This document shows, one piece after another, positions 2 through 50,599 of a DNA stretch of 64,000 nucleotides (the first letter of the stretch is position 1; every line of letters starts with the position of its first letter). The position numbers and the translations under genes are program-made. The notes below the pieces were generated by a model, which searched no databases, had not been told where the DNA came from, and saw only the letters and a list, made by a program, of their open reading frames with translations. The DNA comes from a virus. The DNA is taken from IMG/VR virus record IMGVR_UViG_3300043399_000524, positions 62,001 to 126,000 of that record. One strand, given 5' to 3'.

Positions 2-79
2 TTTGAAACTAGTGTAGGAATTAAAATCAAGTTTAGGTATGAACGGGACTATATTTTGGCAATGTTGAGGTGGAAATGA
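2..79 (+). CDS. C-terminal end of a small paralogous protein (partial)
   Basis: The window opens inside a gene; frame 2 reads 25 codons and stops with TGA at 77-79. The tail, with ERDYILAMLRWK at the end, matches the ending of the protein at 426-728 (EKDYVLFTLRWS). It is therefore a member of the same small-protein family that fills 426-2751. The stop overlaps the next start as ATGA. Function unknown. The true start lies outside the window. Confidence 0.6.
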   Translation, partial: FETSVGIKIKFRYERDYILAMLRWK

Positions 80-429
80 GAGTAAGCATTTGGTATCGCA
101 CTGAATTACAGCAACCTAGTAAGTCAGGTTACTATCTAAGTTATCGTGGATGGGGCATCGGTGGCAAGGCTGATGGTGATAGCGATTGGGGTTATGTCTA
201 TTACGATAAGAAAAAAAATCAATGGAGTGACTACAAAAGCGAGGATAGTCACTATGCTATTGTCTATTACTGGACTGATGCTACACCTGATGATTGGACA
301 GACCAAGACCCTCCTAGCGTCAGCCTACACATACTAAAAGCACAACATAATGTAGCCCTGGAAGATGCGTGGAAAAAAGTTGTAGAAGCAATTGACCAAT
401 ACAACATGATTAAAGAGTTGGTGAAATGA
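76..429 (+). CDS. Small hypothetical protein, Tyr/Trp-rich
   Basis: 117 residues from ATG 76, which overlaps the upstream stop as ATGA; a GTG at 70 in the same frame is the alternative. The N-terminal half is rich in Tyr and Trp, with GYYLSYRGWG near residue 20 and a YYWTDATPDDW segment near 65, and the end is helical and charged. I do not recognise a family. Unlike most neighbours it lacks the C-terminal F-x-L-R-W signature. It is translationally coupled to the next gene (ATGA at 426-429), so it belongs to the early operon that runs to 4086. Confidence 0.7.
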   Translation: MRVSIWYRTELQQPSKSGYYLSYRGWGIGGKADGDSDWGYVYYDKKKNQWSDYKSEDSHYAIVYYWTDATPDDWTDQDPPSVSLHILKAQHNVALEDAWKKVVEAIDQYNMIKELVK

Positions 430-728
430 AACAAGGCGATATCATTAAACTTATTGAAGAAATTGCCGATGGGTTAGCAAAAAAGATTAAACATGATAAA
501 GCAATGTTTGAGATAAAAACAAATACTAAGTATAAGTTCAGCCGTAACTGGTATCAAGCATATTTCGACCTTAAAGACTATGATGCTGTAGATGAATGGT
601 GTGAACAACAGTTTGGAAAGCATCCTAAGAATCCTGATGCTTGGAGTCGCTGGTGGCACAAGTTTGAGGACAGTATTCTGTTCCGTGATGAAAAGGACTA
701 TGTGTTGTTCACGTTGAGGTGGAGTTGA
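426..728 (+). CDS. Small paralogous protein, family A (F.L.W tail)
   Basis: 100 residues. The C-terminal half reads EWCEQQFGK, then RWWHKFED, then DEKDYVLFTLRWS. The same order of blocks occurs at 2473-2751 (QWLEDHYGK, SWWKTFNG, NEKIYIHYKLLE), so the two are paralogues. The start ATG overlaps the previous stop (ATGA). No function can be assigned. The repeated architecture suggests a small alpha/beta domain copied several times within this operon. Confidence 0.75.
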   Translation: MKQGDIIKLIEEIADGLAKKIKHDKAMFEIKTNTKYKFSRNWYQAYFDLKDYDAVDEWCEQQFGKHPKNPDAWSRWWHKFEDSILFRDEKDYVLFTLRWS

Positions 729-1006
729 TGAAATTATTTTATAGTAGTGCTGGGGCAAGCAATCCTAGCTTTGTGTATAAATTCAAAGTTAAAAAGTGTA
801 CAACTGAAATGTATGAGTGGGCTAGCAATTATCCCGAAAAAGGCCCCTTCAGCCGTTGGTATGTAGAATGGAATACTATGAAAATGGATAGCGGCAAAAA
901 TTACGATGTAATACAGATTGAACACAGCGAAGCAGCCAAAATATTCAAAATTGCATTCGCGGGTGAATATGAAGATATCACTATGAAAGAATATAGGCTT
1001 GATTGA
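728..1006 (+). CDS. Small paralogous protein, family A (diverged)
   Basis: 92 residues from ATG 728, which shares one base with the upstream TGA (TGATG). GTG 719 is an in-frame alternative. It contains a FSRWYVEW block like the RWW block of the 426-728 protein, then HSEAAKIFKIAF in the place where relatives have the acidic-D-A-x-x-F motif. It is extended by about 12 residues after that motif. Unknown function, same operon. Confidence 0.65.
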   Translation: MKLFYSSAGASNPSFVYKFKVKKCTTEMYEWASNYPEKGPFSRWYVEWNTMKMDSGKNYDVIQIEHSEAAKIFKIAFAGEYEDITMKEYRLD

Positions 1007-1217
1007 AGTCAAACTGATAGATAAACTTCCTATTGAGTTTTTGGTCATTGTAAATGAACTCAAAGAAAAGGGATATGTTCAAGGCGTAGACTTTGACTTT
1101 GCCTATCATCCACCCAAATTTGATGACTTTTCAGGTGATGCAGTCTATAATAGATGTGTAATCTTTACTTTTTATAAAGAAGAATTAGCAACATGGTTCA
1201 GTCTAATATACCATTAA
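999..1217 (+). CDS. Small paralogous protein, TTG start
   Basis: 72 residues with a TTG start at 999 that overlaps the previous gene by 8 bases. It ends FYKEELATWFSLIYH, the family pattern of an acidic residue, then Ala, aromatic-Phe, Leu and an aromatic end. It also overlaps the next gene by 25 bases. The start is uncertain because no ATG precedes the conserved part. Confidence 0.55.
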   Translation: MIEVKLIDKLPIEFLVIVNELKEKGYVQGVDFDFAYHPPKFDDFSGDAVYNRCVIFTFYKEELATWFSLIYH

Positions 1218-1468
1218 CAATAGATCAAGTAATCAAAGAGAAAGTCGATGAAATGCAAAAGGGTATCGACAATGATGTTATGAGAGCCTGTTTAGTCGAA
1301 AGTGGCTGGACACAAGTAGAATTCTACTATACCAATAATAAACACGCAATTGATGTGCTAAATTGGATCGGTGACAATGTGAAAGAAAATCAGTGGTCAC
1401 GGTTGAACAGTTACTTTGTATTCCGCAAGAAAAAAGATGCGGAGTGGTTCATGTTACGATGGCTATAA
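1193..1468 (+). CDS. Small paralogous protein, family A
   Basis: 91 residues. It contains VLNWIGDNV, then QWSRLNSYFVF, then KKKDAEWFMLRWL, which is the cleanest copy of the C-terminal family motif. It starts inside the 3' end of the preceding gene, so it is probably coupled. Function unknown. Confidence 0.7.
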   Translation: MVQSNIPLTIDQVIKEKVDEMQKGIDNDVMRACLVESGWTQVEFYYTNNKHAIDVLNWIGDNVKENQWSRLNSYFVFRKKKDAEWFMLRWL

Positions 1469-1469
1469 A

Positions 1470-1691
1470 ATGGAATATACTATAGTCGAAGATGGGTGTG
1501 ACTGCTATCCTTGGCATGAAGTTTATGCTTTGTTGCCGCATAAAACTGTGACTGGTAAGAGAGTTTGGTTACAAAAAGTGTATAAGCGTAAAGTGTGGGT
1601 TGTATGGGGCACAGGATTTCATATGGAACCAGAAGTGCAATATGCTACTGCATTTGATTTATTAGTTTATGACAACAAGTATAATCCTTAA
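1470..1691 (+). CDS. Small basic protein, family B (PW...GKR.WL..VY+R)
   Basis: 73 residues from ATG 1470, one base after the upstream TAA. The frame opens further upstream at 1416, but that stretch only overlaps the previous gene. It carries PWHEVYALLP, then GKRVWLQKVYKR, and a late FDLL. The protein at 25783-25977 has PWERWFAWYP, GKRTWLKIVYRR and FDLL in the same order, so the two are paralogues in different parts of the genome. Function unknown. Confidence 0.7.
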   Translation: MEYTIVEDGCDCYPWHEVYALLPHKTVTGKRVWLQKVYKRKVWVVWGTGFHMEPEVQYATAFDLLVYDNKYNP

Positions 1692-1890
1692 ACATGGGTT
1701 AGGTGCCCGTGAAGAACAATGGTTAGCAAAGAATGTGGGGCCTAGAATGCATTATATTCACAATAGCATAGGTGGACAGGGCTGGATAGCTAAACGTGAA
1801 TGGACTCCTGGAATGGTTAGTAGAGAATGGGTTCTGACATTTGAAGATGAACGCTATGCTACATTTTTTAGATTGATGTTTCCAGAATGA
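1669..1890 (+). CDS. Small paralogous protein, family A
   Basis: 73 residues, overlapping the upstream gene by 23 bases. It has EEQWLAKNVG near residue 15 and ends FEDERYATFFRLMFPE, matching the family tail. Its stop overlaps the next start as ATGA. Function unknown. Confidence 0.7.
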   Translation: MTTSIILKHGLGAREEQWLAKNVGPRMHYIHNSIGGQGWIAKREWTPGMVSREWVLTFEDERYATFFRLMFPE

Positions 1891-2153
1891 ATATATCTAA
1901 AGACTTTCAGGATTATGATGACGATGGTCCAGAAATGGAATTTCGAAAAAACCGCTGGAACTATTGGTCTGCTCTTAAACAAGCACGCCAAGAATATATG
2001 AAAACAAAAATAGAGTTTGATGCGTATGAGTTTGAAGATTGGCTCGAAGCAATATATGGTATAAAGATGAACATCGTCAACGGTAATATCACAGATGGTT
2101 ATAAAATTATGGATGAAGCCAAATACACATTTTTTCTATTGAAATTCCAATGA
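1887..2153 (+). CDS. Small paralogous protein, family A
   Basis: 88 residues, ATGA-coupled on both sides. It contains FEDWLEAIYGIK near residue 45, comparable to QWLEDHYGK in the 2473-2751 protein, and ends MDEAKYTFFLLKFQ. Acidic N-terminus. Function unknown. Confidence 0.7.
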   Translation: MNISKDFQDYDDDGPEMEFRKNRWNYWSALKQARQEYMKTKIEFDAYEFEDWLEAIYGIKMNIVNGNITDGYKIMDEAKYTFFLLKFQ

Positions 2154-2494
2154 ATAACAATCATCCATTTAAGATCACACAGTACGATAGATTTATCACT
2201 GTGACATGGCCTAATATGAATGATGTCAGGGAAAAAGTTACTAAATTAAAATTAATAGAGGCAGCATTTCAACAATCCAAAGCAGTTGAAGTAGGCTTTG
2301 TGTTAGAACTCAACAATAAAGAATATGATATCATGTGGATCAATTCTTTTCTTAGTTTGACTGAAAATGATTATGTGAATTATATACAAGATATGTATGT
2401 TATTAAGGGTGTTGCATATAGAGAGAAAACAGATGCAGAGAAGTTCTACAATTGGTTAGAAGGAAAGTATATATGGCAATTACTCAAGGAATAA
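2150..2494 (+). CDS. Small paralogous protein, family A, extended C-terminus
   Basis: 114 residues, ATGA-coupled to the previous gene. The familiar tail appears as REKTDAEKFYNWLEG and is followed by ten extra residues that overlap the next gene. It looks like a diverged member that has gained an extension. Function unknown. Confidence 0.65.
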   Translation: MNNNHPFKITQYDRFITVTWPNMNDVREKVTKLKLIEAAFQQSKAVEVGFVLELNNKEYDIMWINSFLSLTENDYVNYIQDMYVIKGVAYREKTDAEKFYNWLEGKYIWQLLKE

Positions 2495-2751
2495 ACGGAA
2501 CATTCGTTTCATACAGCGAAATGGATGACCCAATCTATTTTCGTAAATTCAAAAAGACCGTTCCACTTGACGGATCATGGGAAACCCGTGTATTCTATGA
2601 GATAACTAAGTTTCCATTGGGTCGCAAAGAAACAGAACAATGGCTAGAAGACCATTATGGTAAGTTGAAATATAGCGACAGTTGGTGGAAAACATTTAAC
2701 GGTATATGTATGAATGAAAAGATATACATACACTACAAATTATTGGAGTAA
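2473..2751 (+). CDS. Small paralogous protein, family A
   Basis: 92 residues from ATG 2473, chosen because AGGAAAG lies 6-12 bases upstream; the TTG at 2452 extends only into the preceding gene. It carries QWLEDHYGK, SWWKTFNG and NEKIYIHYKLLE, the closest match in the window to the 426-728 protein. It is the last member before the exonuclease gene. Confidence 0.7.
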   Translation: MAITQGINGTFVSYSEMDDPIYFRKFKKTVPLDGSWETRVFYEITKFPLGRKETEQWLEDHYGKLKYSDSWWKTFNGICMNEKIYIHYKLLE

Positions 2752-2753
2752 GT

Positions 2754-3314
2754 ATGGCGGCGGATATAATGATTGATATTGAAAGTTTGAACACAACACC
2801 TGATTGTGTTATTCTATCTATCGGCGCGGTTAGATTTGATCCTCGAGGCAACGGTGTTGTTGAACGATTAGAACTTAAACCTACAGTCGAGGATCAAACT
2901 GAAATATATAATAGGAGTATTAACGATGATACAATCAGATGGTGGTCAGAACAAAATCCTGCTGCCCTTGAAGAAGCATTCAGCGAAGAAGGTAGAATCC
3001 CATTTGCCGAATGTATGGAGATCCTATACAAGTTTTGTTGGAATCGCCGTGCTGTGTGGAGTAATGGTGCCCCCTTCGATTTGGTCGTTATGGAACATGC
3101 TTGGAGACAAACAAGCGATAAACCTAATCCCATCCCCTGGCCTTTCTGGACAATGCGAGACACAAGAACACTGTGGGAAATCGCAGGAGTCAAACTCAAA
3201 GACGGAGGACACGTTACAAGTCACAAGGCTGTAGAAGATGCTGAACGACAAGCCATCGTTGTTCAACAAGCATACATGAAATTAATGAAAGCAGGATTGG
3301 CAGAATCACGATGA
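2754..3314 (+). CDS. DnaQ-fold 3'-5' exonuclease (Rv2179c/DexA type)
   Basis: 186 residues. The N-terminus shows the DEDD ExoI motif (MIDIESL at residues 6-12), followed by ILSIGAVRFDP, characteristic of the Rv2179c-like phage exonuclease family. Later NGAPFDLVVME gives motif II and SHKAVEDAERQA gives motif III (H...D of the DEDDh type). Such enzymes trim DNA or RNA 3' ends; T4 DexA is the functional parallel. GGAGTAAG precedes ATG 2754. It sits in the early operon just before the mini DnaE-like gene, so a joint role in DNA processing is possible but not shown. Confidence 0.85.
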   Translation: MAADIMIDIESLNTTPDCVILSIGAVRFDPRGNGVVERLELKPTVEDQTEIYNRSINDDTIRWWSEQNPAALEEAFSEEGRIPFAECMEILYKFCWNRRAVWSNGAPFDLVVMEHAWRQTSDKPNPIPWPFWTMRDTRTLWEIAGVKLKDGGHVTSHKAVEDAERQAIVVQQAYMKLMKAGLAESR

Positions 3315-3517
3315 ATGTCGAAAGAGAAAACACTTGGAGAACATTGCAAGGTCTTAAACCTATACAATCTTGGAAATGTAGACTTGGATGGCATCGTTGG
3401 ACTAATTATGAAATTCACGATAGGTCACATGATTTTATGGGACCAGTTGCAAGATGCCATTGTGCTGATTGCGGATTACCTAGAATAGAGCCTCCCTACA
3501 CAAAGAGTAAAAAATGA
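3311..3517 (+). CDS. Small Cys/His-rich phage protein
   Basis: 68 residues, ATGA overlap with the exonuclease stop. It has one Cys and a His near residues 23-28 (CRLGWHRW) and later CHCADC, a spacing that suggests a small zinc site like that of DUF1660-type phage proteins. No function is known. It overlaps the next start by four bases. Confidence 0.65.
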   Translation: MNVERENTWRTLQGLKPIQSWKCRLGWHRWTNYEIHDRSHDFMGPVARCHCADCGLPRIEPPYTKSKK

Positions 3518-4086
3518 AACTAGATGCTGATATTGACATTGACTTTGGTGACAGAGATAAGTTGTTGAAACTTATTGCTCATACATCTGCGGCTATGCGT
3601 AATGTTAAACCCATGCGTAAACATAACACGGGTGTCTATGTTACGGACATTCCGTATGATTCAGTAAATGACATGGCTAGTATTGATTACACCGAGGCTG
3701 AAAAACGTGGTTATTTTAAACTAGACTTGTTAAATGTTCATGTTTACGAGCAAGTACGTGATGAACAGCATTTAGTTGAATTGATGCAAGAACCAGACTG
3801 GTCTAAATTAAATGATAAAGAATTTGTTGAAAAACTGATTCACTTAGCGAATCATTATAATTCTATACAAAAAATGCCTGAACCCATTGATAGTATCCCT
3901 AGACTAGCAATGTTCTTAGCCGCTATTCGTCCAGCTAAAAAGCATTTGATTGGATTACCCTGGAAAGAAGTCGCAAAGACTATATGGGATAAAGGTGATG
4001 ATGGGTACAGTTTTAAGCGTTCGCATGCCGTTGCTTACGCACATTTGGTAGTAGTTCATATGAATCTACTTACGGCATCCTCTTAA
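3514..4086 (+). CDS. Miniature DnaE-like (C-family) DNA polymerase palm fragment
   Basis: 190 residues. The start, DADIDIDFGDRDKLLKLI, parallels the bacterial PolIII alpha palm segment PDFDVDF with its two catalytic Asp (here D8 and D10). MRKHNTGVYV matches the KHAGGVV block. YFKLDLLNV supplies the third palm Asp (D71, E. coli DnaE D555 position in VKFDFLGL). FLAAIRPAKKHLIG resembles the VALFRPGPL block and GYSFKRSHAVAYA the YGFNKSHSAAYA fingers block. PHP, beta-binding and OB domains are absent. The part of the palm that normally precedes D8 (the GPGRGS block) is encoded separately at 47435-47941. Activity is unproven; it could be a regulatory or degenerate relic. Last gene of the early operon; its end overlaps the convergent gene by 17 bases. 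Confidence 0.7.
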   Translation: MKLDADIDIDFGDRDKLLKLIAHTSAAMRNVKPMRKHNTGVYVTDIPYDSVNDMASIDYTEAEKRGYFKLDLLNVHVYEQVRDEQHLVELMQEPDWSKLNDKEFVEKLIHLANHYNSIQKMPEPIDSIPRLAMFLAAIRPAKKHLIGLPWKEVAKTIWDKGDDGYSFKRSHAVAYAHLVVVHMNLLTASS

Positions 4087-4450
4087 CTAACGTAATGCTC
4101 TTGCGTTTGGTCCTACGCTTGTTTAGTTCACTGATACTACATATAGGACCATGAATAATAGTCAGACTTTTATTGTTAAAAGTCCTTAAATAGGGCTTGA
4201 AAATACTCCATTCATCTTTCAGGAATAGGTTTATGGGGATAAGTCTATTACTTTCCCACCACCAAATATCTCCTAATTCTAGGAATTTTTCTTTAATTAG
4301 AGGGTCTACTATGGCCCCATAATCGTATATTGTAGTGACAACATCATCCCTATTCTGTACTATACCCACGTAATCTTGGTTTGAGTGCGAACATACTGTT
4401 ATGAACGGGTGATTTTCACTTAATTTTTTAAAAAATTCGTTGTGTATCAT
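4070..4450 (-). CDS. Hypothetical late protein, minus strand
   Basis: 126 residues from the ATG at 4450. An upstream in-frame ATG (4492) is rejected because it would place the start ahead of the late promoter GATAAATA at 4477-4470. The protein is Trp-rich around GDIWWWESNR and basic at the end (RRTKRKS). I do not recognise the family. It is transcribed divergently from the structural gene at 4597 and convergently to the early operon. Confidence 0.55.
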   Translation of the reverse strand: MIHNEFFKKLSENHPFITVCSHSNQDYVGIVQNRDDVVTTIYDYGAIVDPLIKEKFLELGDIWWWESNRLIPINLFLKDEWSIFKPYLRTFNNKSLTIIHGPICSISELNKRRTKRKSITLVKRMP

Positions 4451-4469
4451 TATTATTTTTAGACCGAAA

Positions 4470-4477
4470 TATTTATC
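4470..4477 (-). promoter_or_regulatory. Late promoter
   Basis: GATAAATA on the minus strand, with the ATG of the 4070-4450 gene 20 bases beyond its last A. Matches the T4 late -10 element TATAAATA. Confidence 0.65.
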
Positions 4478-4502
4478 ATTGGACACAACCATAATATATT
4501 TT

Positions 4503-5343: not shown

Positions 5344-6321
5344 ATGTTTGATATTCTGTCTTTAATTCCAGGCAAGAAAAAACTTACCCACGGTGGCTGG
5401 CATAGCTTTAATGCTATCTGCTGTCACCATCGTGGGCACACTGCTGACAAACGAGGTCGCGGTGGTATTAAGTTTGACGGACAAACAAATTGGTCATATC
5501 ACTGCTTTAATTGTAACTTCAAAACAGGCTTTGTGTTGGGTAGAAGCATTAGTAGAAATACGAGACAATTATTGTCTTGGTGCGGTGTAGATGAATCGCA
5601 AATTGGCAAGTGGAGTTTAGAAAGTTTACAACAAAAAGATTTCTTGGATTTCACACTGCCCAAGAAAAAAGAAAAGAAGATAAAATTCAAAGACCATCAA
5701 TTGCCCGAAAATGCTGTGTTGATTGATGAAAATAACCCATCGCACAAAATATATATAGACTATCTCAGGGCCAGAGGCATAAGTAATACTGAATATCCTT
5801 TCATGGTTACTACTGATGACGTTGGTCGAATGGGTAACCGCATCATTATACCATACACTTATAAAAATAAGATTGTAGGACATACAAGTAGATTCTTAGA
5901 TAATAAAATACCCAAATACATTAACGAACAACAGCAAGGTTATGTGTTTGGTTATGATTTTCAATTACCCGATCAAAGTGTTACTATATTGGTCGAAGGT
6001 ATCTTTGACGCATTGAGTTTAGGTTGTTGTGCATTGACACACAATTCAATCAATGAAGGTCAAGCAGAATTACTAGCACAATTAAATAGACAGATTATTT
6101 TTGTCCCAGACCGAGACAAATCAGGACTTGAAACTTGTGAGAGAGCTATTCAATTAGGTTATAGTGTCAGCATCCCACATTGGGATAAAGACATAAAAGA
6201 TGTAAATGATGCCGTTGTAAGATATGGTAGACTACCAACTTTACTAAGTATATTAGAGTCTGCTACAATGAGCAAAATTAAAATAGAATTGAGGAAGAAA
6301 CAAATTGAAAAAGGACTATGA
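5344..6321 (+). CDS. 61: DNA primase, T4 gp61-like
   Basis: 325 residues. An N-terminal zinc-ribbon region (CCHH near residue 27, CFNC near 58) is followed by a TOPRIM domain: LVEGIFDALS with the catalytic Glu, then VPDRDKSG with the D-x-D. This is the gp61/DnaG arrangement. It primes lagging-strand synthesis with the gp41 helicase, encoded immediately downstream with a 17-base overlap. The likely promoter gives a leaderless transcript. Length is close to T4 gp61 (342). Confidence 0.9.
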   Translation: MFDILSLIPGKKKLTHGGWHSFNAICCHHRGHTADKRGRGGIKFDGQTNWSYHCFNCNFKTGFVLGRSISRNTRQLLSWCGVDESQIGKWSLESLQQKDFLDFTLPKKKEKKIKFKDHQLPENAVLIDENNPSHKIYIDYLRARGISNTEYPFMVTTDDVGRMGNRIIIPYTYKNKIVGHTSRFLDNKIPKYINEQQQGYVFGYDFQLPDQSVTILVEGIFDALSLGCCALTHNSINEGQAELLAQLNRQIIFVPDRDKSGLETCERAIQLGYSVSIPHWDKDIKDVNDAVVRYGRLPTLLSILESATMSKIKIELRKKQIEKGL

Positions 6322-7756
6322 AGATAATAGTTACCCAGTTGAGAAGCAAAAATATTTTTTACGAATGATGTTAACTAACGCAGAGTTGTTTACCCGTGTT
6401 ACTAACATCTATAATGCAATCAATTTTGATAAATCAATCAGACCTGTTGCTGAGTTTATCAAACACCACGCTGACGAATACAAGATACTACCTGAGTTTG
6501 AACAAGTAGAAGCCGTTACAGGGATTAAACTTGATCCTATTCAAAACTTAAATCAAGGACATTATGATTGGTTTTTGGAACAGTTTGAAAAATTTACTAA
6601 ACGACAAGAACTAGAACGTGCGATTTTAAAGAGTGCTGACTTGCTTGAAAAAGGTGAATATGATCCTGTTGAAAAATTAATCAAAGATGCGGTACAAATA
6701 AGTCTACAAAAAGACATGGGTATGGATTACTTTGCTGATCCACGTGGTCGGTTGTTAGCATTGAAATCTAATAATGGTCAAGTCAGTACAGGTTGGCCTA
6801 GCATGGACAAGAAACTATATGGTGGTTTTAACCGCGGTGAACTGCAAATCTTTGCAGGAGGCTCAGGTTCTGGTAAGAGTTTGTTCATGCAAAACTTAGC
6901 AGTTAATTGGACTAGTATGGGACTGAACGGAGTATATATCACACTAGAACTTAGTGAAGGCTTGTGTTCTATGCGTATTGACTCCATGACCACTGAAACA
7001 TCTAGTCGTGAAATTTTCAAATCAATTGATGATATTGAAATGAAAATTAAAATGATGAGTAAGAAGTATGGTAAGTTCCGTGTCAAATATATGCCGGCAC
7101 AAAGTAATGTCAACGATATCAGAGCATATTGTAAAGAACTACAGATCCAAACAGGTATGAATATTGACTTTTTGTGTATTGACTATTTGGACTTATTGAT
7201 GCCAGTATCTGCAAAAGTCAGTCCGAGTGATTTGTTTGTTAAAGACAAATATGTTGCAGAAGAAGTGCGTAACTTAGCAAAAGAGTTAAATGTATTATTA
7301 GTAACAGCATCGCAGTTGAATCGTAGTGCTGTAGAGGAGATTGAATTTGACCACAGTCATATTAGTGGCGGTATTAGTAAAATCAATACTGCGGACAATG
7401 TATTTGGAATCTTTACATCCAGGTCTATGCGTGAGCGCGGGCAGTATCAATTGCAATTGATGAAAACTCGTAGTAGTAGTGGTGTAGGACAAAAGATTGA
7501 ACTTGAATTTAATGTAGAAACATTAAGGATTACCGATCCTGATCCTGAAGGTTACGGGGAACAACAATCTAAGTTTAAACCTAGTCCCAGCCCCAATGAC
7601 ATTATGAATAGGTTAAAGCCCCAATCTACAATAGTTTCTACTGAACCTATAGTTGACCAGAATACAGGAGAAGTCTTGGAACCGTCAAACAAGAAGGTTG
7701 TTGTGGACGTTCAGGGATCAAAACTCAAGACTTTATTGAATAGTTTAAAGAAATAA
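6305..7756 (+). CDS. 41: Replicative DNA helicase, T4 gp41 / DnaB-like
   Basis: 483 residues from TTG 6305, supported by GAGGAAG ending eight bases upstream; the first in-frame ATG (6368) would cut the conserved N-terminus. Walker A GGSGSGKS lies near residue 180 after GGFNRGELQIF, Walker B is FLCIDYLDLL, and ASQLNR is the DnaB H3-type block. Hexameric 5'-3' helicase of the replication fork, coupled to primase by gene overlap. The last ~60 residues are low complexity and charged. Confidence 0.9.
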   Translation: MKKDYEDNSYPVEKQKYFLRMMLTNAELFTRVTNIYNAINFDKSIRPVAEFIKHHADEYKILPEFEQVEAVTGIKLDPIQNLNQGHYDWFLEQFEKFTKRQELERAILKSADLLEKGEYDPVEKLIKDAVQISLQKDMGMDYFADPRGRLLALKSNNGQVSTGWPSMDKKLYGGFNRGELQIFAGGSGSGKSLFMQNLAVNWTSMGLNGVYITLELSEGLCSMRIDSMTTETSSREIFKSIDDIEMKIKMMSKKYGKFRVKYMPAQSNVNDIRAYCKELQIQTGMNIDFLCIDYLDLLMPVSAKVSPSDLFVKDKYVAEEVRNLAKELNVLLVTASQLNRSAVEEIEFDHSHISGGISKINTADNVFGIFTSRSMRERGQYQLQLMKTRSSSGVGQKIELEFNVETLRITDPDPEGYGEQQSKFKPSPSPNDIMNRLKPQSTIVSTEPIVDQNTGEVLEPSNKKVVVDVQGSKLKTLLNSLKK

Positions 7757-17798: not shown

Positions 17799-17852
17799 CT
17801 CTTAATTCTGAGAGTTTATGCGGTCCCCGCCGCGTAGTGGAATAGAACCCAC
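17799..17852 (+). promoter_or_regulatory. Multi-hairpin 5' leader
   Basis: Three consecutive small stems: CTCT/AGAG (17799-17814), GCGG/CCGC (17820-17833) and GTGG/CCAC (17837-17852). They lie between the late promoter and AAGGAG. Probably stabilise a very abundant mRNA; regulation is possible. Confidence 0.5.
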
Positions 17853-17873
17853 ATATCAACAAGGAGAAAACAA

Positions 17874-18890
17874 ATGGGACGTCCTTTAAAAATCGCTAAG
17901 GCTCAAGCAGTCTTAACAATCACAGATACAACAGCAGCAACAGATACAGTTACAGTATCTCAAGATATTTCAGCACCACCAACAGGTGTTGGCATTATTG
18001 CAGGTATGCCATTTGTAGTTGCATCAAACGTTGGTGGTCTAACAGCTAACACAACATATTGGGTTTTAGAAGTTATCGATGCTAATAATTTCACAGTTTC
18101 AGCAACTGATTTAAGTGCAAATAGAACTCGCACACCAGTATCATTGTCTGACACAACATCTCAAACAGTCTCCGCTTCCGTCGGTGTAGTTGACGCTTAT
18201 TTCAACAATCCAAACGGTGGCGCAGGTTTCCCAGCAACAAACGCTAACACATACAGTGTAGTTGGTGGTAATACAGCTATTATTGGTCCACAAGTACTAG
18301 CACGTGTTGCTATTGCACAAAATGGTGTAGGTACAATTACAGTAGCCGACGATAGTCCAAACATCACTGGTGTAGGTACAGACTTTGCTAACACGTTGAC
18401 AGATGGAACAGTAATTACAACAGCAGATGGCACATTATTAGGTTATGTAACTGATATCGCTAATGCTAACGCTACATTTGCTACGTTTGCAGCTAACAGC
18501 TTGTCTAATGCTACAAATGTGAGTTTCGTATTTGCTAACAATGAAGCAGGATTTATTGTTCGCCAAAAAGGTAAACAGAAATATCTAGTACAAGGTACAA
18601 CTTCAGGTTTAGTTGGCGCTTGCTTTACAGCTAACCTAGCTAATGCTGATTTATATCCAGGTACTATGAACATTGTTGGTACATATGCTAATGCTGCTAC
18701 AGAAAACGTACAGTCATTAAGCGATCACAATGCAGAATTGTTTACAGCAACCTCTGGCATAACAGCACTGCCAAACGAAACTGCAAACATCAATAATAGC
18801 TCACCAGCATACAGCACGTTCAACACTGCTTACGATGCTGATACATACGGTGGTCAACCATACCCAATCGTAACTATTTCTAATGCATAA
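17874..18890 (+). CDS. Abundant virion structural protein with tail-type beta module
   Basis: 338 residues. Restricted codons (GCT/GCA, GGT, AAC, ACA) and AAGGAG before ATG mark very high expression. Residues ~35-100 (GMPFVVASNVGGLTANTTYWVLEV...NNFTVSA) match a module that recurs in the tail proteins at 42820 and 45341. The middle has VGVVDAYFNNPNGGAGFP and the rest is Asn/Ala/Thr-rich. Likely a major fibre or decoration protein; I cannot name it. Confidence 0.6.
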   Translation: MGRPLKIAKAQAVLTITDTTAATDTVTVSQDISAPPTGVGIIAGMPFVVASNVGGLTANTTYWVLEVIDANNFTVSATDLSANRTRTPVSLSDTTSQTVSASVGVVDAYFNNPNGGAGFPATNANTYSVVGGNTAIIGPQVLARVAIAQNGVGTITVADDSPNITGVGTDFANTLTDGTVITTADGTLLGYVTDIANANATFATFAANSLSNATNVSFVFANNEAGFIVRQKGKQKYLVQGTTSGLVGACFTANLANADLYPGTMNIVGTYANAATENVQSLSDHNAELFTATSGITALPNETANINNSSPAYSTFNTAYDADTYGGQPYPIVTISNA

Positions 18891-47434: not shown

Positions 47435-47941
47435 ATGAGAACTGACATATACGGGCAACAAATCTATGATGAAATGGAGCTATGCTTACTGTATCTGCAG
47501 GATCCCTCACGTAAACTAAAAAAAGTTTTCGTAGAAAAAGAAATCAAGTTTGACGATACCCTACAACTACAAAACATCCCCGAACTTATAAAATACAACA
47601 GTAACAACATTTCTATAGAAGAATTTGACACTATAAATCAAAATAATTGGTTTATGCCCGAAGAATATAAATCAATGGACATAGCCAAATTTGTATTAGA
47701 CCAATGCAAAAATGAAGCAGAATTGCAAAGGGCAGGCGAAGAACTGTTGTTGTTTCAAGAAAGGAACATGTTTACATTGTTGTGCTACTTAAAATATTTG
47801 GTAGATACAATGCGTAAAAATAATATTGTCTGGGGTGTCGGGCGAGGATCGAGTGTTGCTAGTTTCGTATTATTTTTGTTGGGGGTACACCGTATAAATA
47901 GTTTGTATTACGACTTGTCTATCGCTGAATTCTTAAAATAA
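47435..47941 (+). CDS. DnaE-like N-palm fragment (GRGS block), partner candidate of 3514-4086
   Basis: 168 residues. The last ~65 (AGEELLLFQERNMFTLLCYLKYLVDTM, then WGVGRGSSVASFVLFLLGVHRINSLYYDLSIAEFL) follow the PolIII alpha segment that runs up to [34 protein letters not shown]. It stops exactly where bacterial DnaE continues into the catalytic PDFDVDF, which is the start of the protein at 3514. The first 100 residues are acidic and unlike DnaE. No intein-like ends are visible. First gene of an early operon reaching 50868; the promoter predicts a leaderless mRNA. Confidence 0.7.
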   Translation: MRTDIYGQQIYDEMELCLLYLQDPSRKLKKVFVEKEIKFDDTLQLQNIPELIKYNSNNISIEEFDTINQNNWFMPEEYKSMDIAKFVLDQCKNEAELQRAGEELLLFQERNMFTLLCYLKYLVDTMRKNNIVWGVGRGSSVASFVLFLLGVHRINSLYYDLSIAEFLK

Positions 47942-47950
47942 GGAGAAATT

Positions 47951-48292
47951 ATGAAAAATTACAGAACCGCAATGGGAAAAACTGTAGATATGGCTGCATT
48001 AGCAGCAAAAAACGAACATACTAGAGCCGTGGGTAATATGAAAGTAAATGCCCGAGGTGACAAAATTGATAGCACCGGACGAGTCATACAACCAGTAAAC
48101 GAGCGTGTAACACAAAATTATTCTCACACTGTAGGTAATAGGTCAGCGAATGCTAGTCGTACCCAATCAACTCCGCCCAAACCTAAAATTGTAGAAGAAC
48201 TTACTCCTCAAGAACTTGAGTTGGAAGACAGCCTAGAGGATGATTTAGAAGTTGAGAAAATTAAAGCACAGGAACTAAAAGGAAAGAAATGA
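47951..48292 (+). CDS. Small conserved phage protein, unknown
   Basis: 113 residues. YRTAMGKTVDMAALAAKNE and VGNMKVNARGDKIDSTGRVI form a conserved basic N-terminus. The C-terminal third is acidic and helical. AGGAG precedes ATG. Found in related phages without known role. ATGA overlap with the GroES-like gene. Confidence 0.65.
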   Translation: MKNYRTAMGKTVDMAALAAKNEHTRAVGNMKVNARGDKIDSTGRVIQPVNERVTQNYSHTVGNRSANASRTQSTPPKPKIVEELTPQELELEDSLEDDLEVEKIKAQELKGKK

Positions 48293-48669
48293 GCGAATAT
48301 TCTAAACCAGCATTCAGTCCCACGAAAGTAGACAAATTACGGTTCATGTACGACAACATTATTGTTTCGGATATGAAATTTGATGAACGCATCAGTCGAG
48401 GAGGTATCGTTCTTTTGGACGATGACAAGAAAAGTTCTGGTATTCGCCCTCGTTGGGCAAAGATTTATGGTTTGGGTCCTGATGTAAAAGATCCACAACT
48501 TGAAATTGGGAAATATATTCTTATCAGTCACGGTCGTTGGACACGAGGTATCACTGTTGAAACTCCAGAGGGCAAAGTCACGTTGCGTAAAGTAGATCCT
48601 AATGATATACTACTTGTGTCGGATGAGCCGATGGAAGATGAAACAATGAGTGATAAGGTTATAGCATGA
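48289..48669 (+). CDS. GroES/gp31-like co-chaperonin
   Basis: 126 residues. MYDNIIVSDMKFDERISRGGIVLLDDD is the first strand and mobile loop region of a co-chaperonin (GGIVL is the GroEL-binding tip). WAKIYGLGPDVKDP and GKYILISHGRWTRGI follow the GroES beta-barrel. T4 gp31 replaces GroES to let GroEL fold the large capsid protein. It sits among conserved early genes. Without structure comparison, gp31 rather than host-type GroES cannot be decided. Confidence 0.75.
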   Translation: MSEYSKPAFSPTKVDKLRFMYDNIIVSDMKFDERISRGGIVLLDDDKKSSGIRPRWAKIYGLGPDVKDPQLEIGKYILISHGRWTRGITVETPEGKVTLRKVDPNDILLVSDEPMEDETMSDKVIA

Positions 48670-49675: not shown

Positions 49676-50599
49676 ATGAAGAATCAACTTTGGGTAGAAA
49701 AGTATAGGCCCGCTTCGGTAGACGAATATGTTTTTGTCGATGATCGTCAACGAGAGCAAGTCGCACAATGGATTAAAGACGGGTCTATACCCAATCTATT
49801 ATTCAGCGGGGACCCTGGCACTGGTAAAACTACACTAGCTAAAGTTCTAATTAAAGAATTAGGTGTAGAAGATTATGATGTGATGGAAATCAACGCAAGT
49901 CGTGATAACGGCGTTGACTACATCAGGTTCAAAATTGAGGGCTTTGTGCAAACTATGCCTTTCGGTAAGTTCAAAGTGGTTTTGTTAGACGAGGCAGATT
50001 ATCTGTCCCAGCCCGGTCAAGCTATCTTGCGTGGATTGATAGAATCATATTCTGACACCGCACGATTCATATTGACTTGTAATTATGACTACAAAATCAT
50101 CCCTGCATTAAAATCTCGCTGTCATAATATGCATATTGCAAAAACTGATATGACAGAATTCACTGCAAGGGCGGCAACTGTATTAGTTAACGAGAATGTA
50201 GAATTTGATTTAGATACACTGGATAACTATATTCGTGCCACATACCCGGATTTGCGTAAATGTTTAAATCAACTTCAAGTTAACAGCAATACAGGTAAGT
50301 TGTTATCTGCACAAGCACAAGGTTCTAGTGAACATGAATTATTGTTAGAGGCAACACAATTGTTTAAAGCTGGAAAAATTCTTGAAGGAAGACAACAGTT
50401 AATGCAATATATCGCACTTTATCCTACACGAATTGAGGATACATATAGGTGGATGTACGACAATTTAGATTTGTGGGGCAAAGATCAGGAAAAGAAAGAT
50501 GCAAGCATTATCATTATACGAAATGGTCTTGCGAATCTTCCATTAGTTGGAATCCCCGAAATTAGCATGGCAGCAACATTAGTGGAGTTAACAAGTTGA
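49676..50599 (+). CDS. 44: Clamp loader large subunit, T4 gp44-like
   Basis: 307 residues (T4 319). WVEKYRPASVDEYV, Walker A GDPGTGKTTLAK, Walker B VVLLDEADYLS, SRC sensor (LKSRCHNMHI) and sensor 2 region are all present. It loads the gp45 sliding clamp. It starts directly after the BI-1 stop. No obvious gp62 or gp45 is adjacent, so those are presumably outside the window. Confidence 0.92.
   Translation: MKNQLWVEKYRPASVDEYVFVDDRQREQVAQWIKDGSIPNLLFSGDPGTGKTTLAKVLIKELGVEDYDVMEINASRDNGVDYIRFKIEGFVQTMPFGKFKVVLLDEADYLSQPGQAILRGLIESYSDTARFILTCNYDYKIIPALKSRCHNMHIAKTDMTEFTARAATVLVNENVEFDLDTLDNYIRATYPDLRKCLNQLQVNSNTGKLLSAQAQGSSEHELLLEATQLFKAGKILEGRQQLMQYIALYPTRIEDTYRWMYDNLDLWGKDQEKKDASIIIIRNGLANLPLVGIPEISMAATLVELTS

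What the first reader, a model, noticed from the sequence alone, without database searches (positions are those of the whole stretch)
3514..4086. Catalytic half of a split, miniature C-family (DnaE) polymerase
A 190-residue protein lines up with the catalytic palm of bacterial PolIII alpha. It has the D-x-D pair (D8/D10), the K-H-x-x-G block, the third Asp (D71 in YFKLDLL), the RP block and the fingers motif FKRSHAVAYA. Everything before the D-x-D is missing, and so are the PHP, beta-binding and OB domains. All three palm aspartates are retained, which argues against simple decay. A T4-like phage normally uses a family B polymerase (gp43), so a second polymerase-like core is unexpected. I cannot tell whether this has been described.
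Basis: partly seen in the sequence, partly recalled or inferred. Interest (0 to 1): 0.9.

Follow-up and report, generated by a model that had tools for sequence, protein, structure and literature searches.

The report
Split miniature DNA polymerase III, known
Two small phage proteins made by genes far apart together match the catalytic core of the bacterial DNA-copying enzyme (DNA polymerase III); this split mini-polymerase is real and common in large T4-like phages, but it was described in 2021, and we found no report of a test of whether it copies DNA.

Summary
ORF 3514-4086 (190 aa) is the second half, and ORF 47435-47941 (168 aa) the first half, of a minimal C-family (PolIII alpha/DnaE) catalytic core. 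Profile, fold and motif evidence agree; on four PolIII alpha/PolC structures the N-half alignment ends 3-4 residues before the C-half alignment starts. D6, D8, D10 and D71 are invariant in 141 distinct C-halves, GxGRGS in 135 distinct N-halves. C-half dN/dS is about 0.08, so decay is unlikely. In 21 records chosen because they hold a half, the N-half is in 21, the C-half in 20, a family B polymerase in 19, a PHP domain in none.

It is not new. Iyer et al. [quoted passage not shown] Added here: a fixed break point with no room for a split intein; C-half usually near primase/helicase, N-half near the clamp loader; and, in this clade, a DEDDh exonuclease gene just upstream of the C-half (102 of 131 loci). 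Most likely a heterodimeric accessory DNA polymerase at the phage fork; activity is untested.

The parts
3514..4086 (+). C-half of mini PolIII alpha: D6/D8/D10 strand, H37-x-x-G40, K69-x-D71, R139-P140-x-K142, reduced fingers ending in FKRSH171
47435..47941 (+). N-half of mini PolIII alpha: palm part with the GxGRGSS motif (residues 134-140); residues about 1-68 unmatched in the fold lists
2754..3314 (+). DEDDh 3'-5' exonuclease (PF16473, phrog_255), D8/E10/D109/H157/D162 present, just upstream of the C-half (one 68-aa ORF between them here); candidate proofreading partner (inference)
3311..3517 (+). 68-aa ORF that looks like a zinc ribbon by eye (Cys/His pairs); overlaps the C-half start
   Evidence: sequence only
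4070..4492 (-). convergent small ORF of unknown function (phrog_11637) overlapping the 3' end of the C-half gene; conserved neighbour
5344..6321 (+). Toprim-domain DNA primase (phrog_47)
6305..7756 (+). DnaB-like replicative helicase (phrog_19)
47951..48292 (+). phrog_14844 protein of unknown function, directly after the N-half
48289..48669 (+). GroES/head-morphogenesis-like protein (phrog_931), near the N-half
49676..50599 (+). sliding-clamp loader (gp44-type, phrog_168)

Best explanation
The two genes encode the two halves of one minimal C-family (pol-beta-type) nucleotidyltransferase core. The N-half supplies the GxGRGS motif that holds the incoming nucleotide. The C-half supplies the metal-binding aspartates (D6, D8, D71) and a reduced fingers region for the template. 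The halves meet as separate chains and form an accessory DNA polymerase that works with the phage's family B polymerase at the T4-like fork. Since the thumb, beta-binding, OB and PHP domains and much of the fingers are gone, it is probably distributive and makes short stretches, such as primer extension or gap filling. Shown: homology, predicted fold of each half, fixed break point, strict conservation, co-occurrence, replication-gene context. Inferred: assembly, catalysis, DNA as substrate, and the role.
For: Profiles: the N-half profile hits nine PDB sequences, all PolIII alpha (E 5e-6 to 1.1e-5); hhalign to DnaE gives P 3.5e-11 for the N-half and 1.5e-6 for the C-half. Fold: AlphaFold2 models of the single halves are confident (pLDDT 93.5 and 90.2). 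The C-half aligns over 187 of 190 residues to 5lew (Z 9.4, chain 416-806), first unrelated row Z 3.5; the N-half over 92 residues to 5lew (Z 10.9, chain 307-413), first unrelated row Z 2.6. The ranges abut in 5lew (413/416), 4iqj (455/458), 5fkv (393/397) and 3f2c (965/968). Catalytic residues are invariant in 141 and 135 distinct proteins. C-half dN/dS against the window: median 0.089 over the 68 of 115 pairs with usable dS. Of 17 records chosen through the C-half, 17 have the N-half; of 4 chosen through the N-half, 3 have the C-half, and in the fourth (G008) the contig ends about where spacing would place it. Distances of the halves correlate over 20 records (Mantel r 0.94, 0 of 5000 shuffles); this shows co-inheritance and has no control gene. 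A primase or helicase gene is annotated within the stretch fetched around the C-half in 9 of 10 named phages (not XacN1); a clamp loader stands near the N-half in 4 of 5 (not Slicko01).
Against: No activity or interaction is known. The cellular-invariant fingers block from E. coli T680 to R709 has no counterpart, nor has the thumb (D8 to H37 is 29 residues against 108 from D403 to H511). I did not search for a clamp-binding motif. The C-half profile alone hits PolIII alpha in the PDB only at E 0.2, and one of its four stretches is placed differently from hhalign's placing. Foldseek E-values are weak (best 4e-3 and 0.15, none at or below 0.001). AlphaFold2 was trained on PDB structures. The complex was not modelled. 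dS is 0.8 or more in the closest pairs, so dN/dS values are rough.
Confidence: 0.7

Rival explanations
1. The reconstituted core is an active nucleotidyltransferase but not a template-directed DNA polymerase (for example terminal or small-molecule transfer), having lost the thumb and most of the fingers.
For: Metal and nucleotide motifs are strictly kept while thumb and much of the fingers are gone. The pol-beta superfamily holds many non-templated enzymes (PMC7281927, passage).
Against: Finger motifs of PolIII alpha are kept: R139, P140 and H171 invariant in 141 distinct proteins. Both genes usually sit among replication genes.
Confidence: 0.15
2. A non-catalytic scaffold: an old polymerase core kept for protein or DNA binding at the replisome.
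For: The phages have their own family B polymerase in 19 of 21 records.
Against: The metal-binding aspartates are invariant in 141 of 141 distinct C-halves, which a scaffold would not need.
Confidence: 0.1
3. Decaying or fragmented remnant of a full DnaE gene.
For: Most domains of a cellular PolIII alpha are absent.
Against: C-half dN/dS about 0.08; intact frames of similar length (C-half 186-236, N-half 152-248 codons stop to stop, 181 and 169 loci) and the same break point across families only about 40% identical.
Confidence: 0.02
4. The halves are joined into one protein by a split intein or by RNA trans-splicing.
For: Inteins and split genes are known in relatives: MIJ3 is reported to have an intein in its split PolB (PMC6892783, abstract and passages).
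Against: N-halves end 2-6 residues after F166 in 167 of 167 and C-halves begin 1-18 residues before D6 in 180 of 180 complete rows, too little for intein halves (their usual size is recalled). Rfam at gathering threshold finds no intron in the window (its one match is a freshwater-2 RNA).
Confidence: 0.03

Closest known systems
Split minimal DNA polymerase III alpha of group 2.2 jumbo phages (Iyer et al. 2021, Viruses 13:63, PMC7824862)
   Same: Split into an NTP-binding N-terminal protein and a metal- and template-binding C-terminal protein, distant genes, family B polymerase in the same phage; Atu_ph07, which carries close relatives of both window proteins, is one of their group 2.2 examples.
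   Different: Nothing basic. This phage is uncultured: its C-half is 100% identical to one IMG/VR contig (L002) and 91% or less to the other IMG/VR contigs found, and about 50% at most to named phages. The exonuclease neighbour and the quantified break point are not in the passages I read.
Bacterial PolIII alpha (DnaE, PolC)
   Same: Palm core with GxGRGS, DxDxD, HxxG, KxD, RP and the FNKSH finger motif in the same order; the C-half fold aligns over nearly its whole length.
   Different: One long chain (E. coli DnaE 1160 residues) with PHP, thumb, full fingers, beta-binding and OB domains (layout recalled); here 358 residues in two chains.
Long DnaE-like polymerases of other phages (Streptomyces phage Bovely, Gordonia phage Stormageddon, Pseudomonas phage E79)
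   Same: C-family polymerase encoded by a phage.
   Different: One place aligned to 73-95% of E. coli DnaE, not two short genes; these phages have smaller genomes (about 50-136 kb).

Membership tests
[quoted passage not shown]
Split minimal PolIII alpha of group 2.2 jumbo phages (Iyer 2021) | Genes lie far apart | tested here: met
   43.9 kb apart in the window
Split minimal PolIII alpha of group 2.2 jumbo phages (Iyer 2021) | Family B DNA polymerase in the same phage | tested here: met
   G000:137645-138925, 112.7 bits
Split minimal PolIII alpha of group 2.2 jumbo phages (Iyer 2021) | No other PolIII alpha domains in the phage | tested here: met
   In the held 139-kb record: PHP none, PF17657 none, PF07733 only at the N-half. 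Over 21 records: PHP 0 of 21; PF07733 over cut-off only at the N-half, two weak places elsewhere; PF17657 on the C-half in 8 of 9 places, the ninth weak. The record may be incomplete.
C-family DNA polymerase (PolIII alpha) | Pol-beta-type palm with three catalytic Asp and GxGRGS | tested here: met
C-family DNA polymerase (PolIII alpha) | Thumb and complete fingers (block around E. coli T680-R709) | tested here: not met
   residue spacing; so it is filed as a minimal relative, not a standard member
C-family DNA polymerase (PolIII alpha) | DNA polymerase activity | not testable with these tools
   no bench data seen in search listings 14, 15, 95-97, 113
Split-intein DnaE (as in cyanobacteria, recalled) | Intein halves at the break | tested here: not met
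   too few residues beyond the break in 167 of 167 N-halves and 180 of 180 C-halves

The most novel reading that the evidence does not exclude
The smallest C-family replicase core is a three-part enzyme: N-half, C-half and the DEDDh exonuclease encoded just upstream of the C-half act together as a proofreading polymerase that extends primers or fills gaps on one strand at the fork, dividing labour with the phage's family B polymerase.
Probability: 0.2. Interest if true: 0.7.

Novelty: new member of a known kind. Interest (0 to 1): 0.42.

Why it matters
If the pair is active it would be a C-family polymerase of 358 residues in two chains, without thumb, PHP or clamp-binding domains. It would show what bacterial replicases need for catalysis, and give a phage fork with two unrelated polymerases to study. 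Iyer et al. also propose such forms as models of ancestral PolIII (passage). The kind was published in 2021; this window adds one uncultured member, and the survey adds a fixed break point, strict active-site conservation and a linked exonuclease.

Tried and rejected
Sequence search of single proteins against the PDB gave nothing useful (three chance hits at E 1 to 1.6 for the C-half; none for the N-half); profiles were needed. Pfam on the window's C-half alone: no match. Rows include repeats of the same phage, hence the counts of distinct proteins. N-half dN/dS: only 1 of 19 pairs usable because dS is saturated (0.127). Exonuclease beside the C-half: found in 102 of the 131 IMG/VR C-half loci (of 151) that hold over 900 nt upstream, always on the same strand, median gap 15 nt, up to 1030 nt; absent in 29. 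It is not family-wide: PF16473 is in 13 of 21 records (12 over cut-off), adjacent to or within about 1 kb of the C-half in the 8 IMG/VR records of the window's clade that have it over cut-off, but 7-9 kb after the N-half in RaK2, 121Q and GAP32, elsewhere in Phosso, and not found in PA5oct, Atu_ph07, SCTP-2, XacN1, Slicko01 or the Vibrio phage. XacN1 has an annotated epsilon-subunit gene a few genes after its C-half, not matched by PF16473. Reduction from a bacterial DnaE versus an ancient form was not tested; the shared stretch is too short for a trustworthy tree. The VIA lists name no other family above Z 3.5 (C-half) and 2.6 (N-half); they re-rank Foldseek's candidates only.

Full report
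What is there. ORF 3514-4086 (+) codes for 190 residues from an ATG. PHROGs places it in phrog_11778 'DNA polymerase' (E 9.5e-60) and ORF 47435-47941 (+, 168 aa) in phrog_11127 'DNA polymerase' (E 1.3e-38); the latter also passes the Pfam cut-off for PF07733, DNA_pol3_alpha (E 2e-9). The window is bases 62001-126000 of a 139,307-base virus record. It looks T4-like: a primase, a DnaB-type helicase and a gp44-type clamp loader lie in the window, and a family B polymerase lies in the same record beyond it.

Homology. A profile of 18 N-halves finds nine PDB sequences, all PolIII alpha, E 5e-6 to 1.1e-5. A profile of 16 C-halves also finds only PolIII alpha, seven sequences, but weakly (best E 0.2); DxDxD, RP and FxKSH stretches come in order, while one stretch is placed elsewhere than hhalign places it. 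Profile-profile comparison with ten DnaE sequences (E. coli, five phages, four plasmids) gives P 3.5e-11 for the N-half and 1.5e-6 for the C-half. PF07733 matches 18 of 18 N-halves; PF17657 (finger domain) matches 7 of 16 C-halves, over its cut-off in 1 of 21 whole records.

Fold. AlphaFold2 models of the halves, each folded alone on alignments of relatives, are confident: C-half pLDDT 93.5, pTM 0.81 (65 sequences); N-half pLDDT 90.2, pTM 0.72 (59 sequences). Foldseek ranks PolIII alpha first for both (ranks 1-10 and 1-7) with weak E-values, best 4e-3 and 0.15. VIA-align, a second look at those candidates, gives the C-half Z 9.4 over 187 residues (5lew, rmsd 3.8; also 9.4 for PolC 3f2c), first unrelated row 3.5; the N-half gets Z 10.9 over 92 residues (5lew, rmsd 2.8), first unrelated row 2.6. 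In 5lew, 4iqj, 5fkv and 3f2c the N-half range ends 3-4 residues before the C-half range starts. The break therefore falls in the short link before the DxD strand: E. coli has nine residues between F391 and D401 (numbering), the window's halves seven in all. N-half residues 1 to about 68 are unmatched in these lists.

Catalytic residues. In 141 distinct C-halves D6, D8, I9, D10, H37, G40, P47, K69, D71, L73, W96, R139, P140, K142, H171 and Y175 never vary; in 135 distinct N-halves R99, E103, G134, G136, R137, G138, S139 and S143 never vary. Many match residues invariant in the ten DnaE sequences (E328, R362-S364, D401, D403, D405, H511, G514, K553, D555, L557, R639, P640, H760). K142 is invariant in the phages and not in that DnaE list; that it stands in for a lost finger Arg or Lys is a guess. 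Without counterpart are the thumb and the finger block around T680-R709. C-half dN/dS against the two nearest distinct relatives is 0.077 and 0.073, median 0.089 over the 68 of 115 pairs with usable dS.

Distribution. At E up to 0.01 tblastn finds the C-half in 63 and the N-half in 76 of 50,697 phage records; the N-half list includes some Bacteroides and Streptomyces phages that I did not examine. I looked closely at 21 records: the window's own, ten named phages and ten IMG/VR contigs, all chosen because they hold one half (17 the C-half, 4 the N-half). The N-half is in 21, the C-half in 20, PF00136 PolB in 19 (the misses are G001, a 92-kb record whose two halves equal the window's, and G004, 260 kb), PHP in 0 with 14 of 14 controls positive. 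The C-half miss, G008, is a contig that ends at 348.7 kb, about 1 kb short of where the usual 43-45 kb spacing would put the gene. The halves are on the same strand in 19 of 20 records and 30-61 kb apart with the C-half first in 14 of 20, counting G000 and G001 apart.

Context. In ten of ten named phages a convergent small ORF follows the C-half, at once or (XacN1) after one gene; it is phrog_11637 in nine of ten, and a relative was found in 136 of 145 IMG/VR loci with room. A primase or helicase is annotated in the fetched stretch in nine of ten (not XacN1). After the N-half come relatives of the window's phrog_14844 and GroES-like proteins in 139 of 139 IMG/VR loci with room. A clamp loader stands near the N-half in PA5oct, RaK2, Atu_ph07 and XacN1, not in Slicko01, whose replication factor C gene is near the C-half instead. 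In the window's wider clade a PF16473 exonuclease stands upstream of the C-half on the same strand in 102 of 131 loci (median gap 15 nt); the five DEDDh residues are kept in every row that covers them (103, 104, 112, 113 and 113 of 114 rows). In the window itself a 68-aa ORF lies between the two. The link is not family-wide (details under Tried and rejected).

No joint. N-halves stop 2-6 residues after F166 (167 of 167) and C-halves start 1-18 residues before D6 (180 of 180), so intein halves do not fit; Rfam at gathering threshold shows no intron in the window. The halves should therefore meet as separate chains.

Literature. Iyer et al. 2021 (PMC7824862; section 3.4.1 read whole; [quoted passage not shown] Attai et al. 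2018 (PMC6102473, passages) annotated an alpha (gp316) and an epsilon subunit (gp671) in Atu_ph07. The listings of searches showed no paper that promised bench work on it; most subscription papers and all preprints are outside that library.

Verdict. A real, conserved, already described split mini-polymerase. Assembly, catalysis and role remain to be shown; my reading is a distributive accessory DNA polymerase at the fork (0.7 for the polymerase heterodimer; the exact role is open).

Noticed in passing
window 17799-17876 (+): Match to Rfam RF02980 freshwater-2 RNA, 62.2 bits against a gathering score of 49.9.
   Followed up: no
window 4070-4492 (-): Small convergent gene of unknown function (phrog_11637) that overlaps the 3' end of the polymerase C-half gene and stays with it across jumbo phages.
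   Followed up: partly
L134 and L135 (IMGVR_UViG_3300032288_004815): The N-half gene occurs twice on one 117.7-kb contig, on opposite strands about 72 kb apart; a duplication or an assembly fold-back.
   Followed up: no
[quoted passage not shown] it may be a small separate domain.
   Followed up: no
window 70-2751: About ten small tandem ORFs (roughly 70-120 aa) in one direction, several ending in an aromatic-rich stretch such as WFMLRWL or FFLLKFQ; may be a paralogous array (seen by eye).
   Followed up: no
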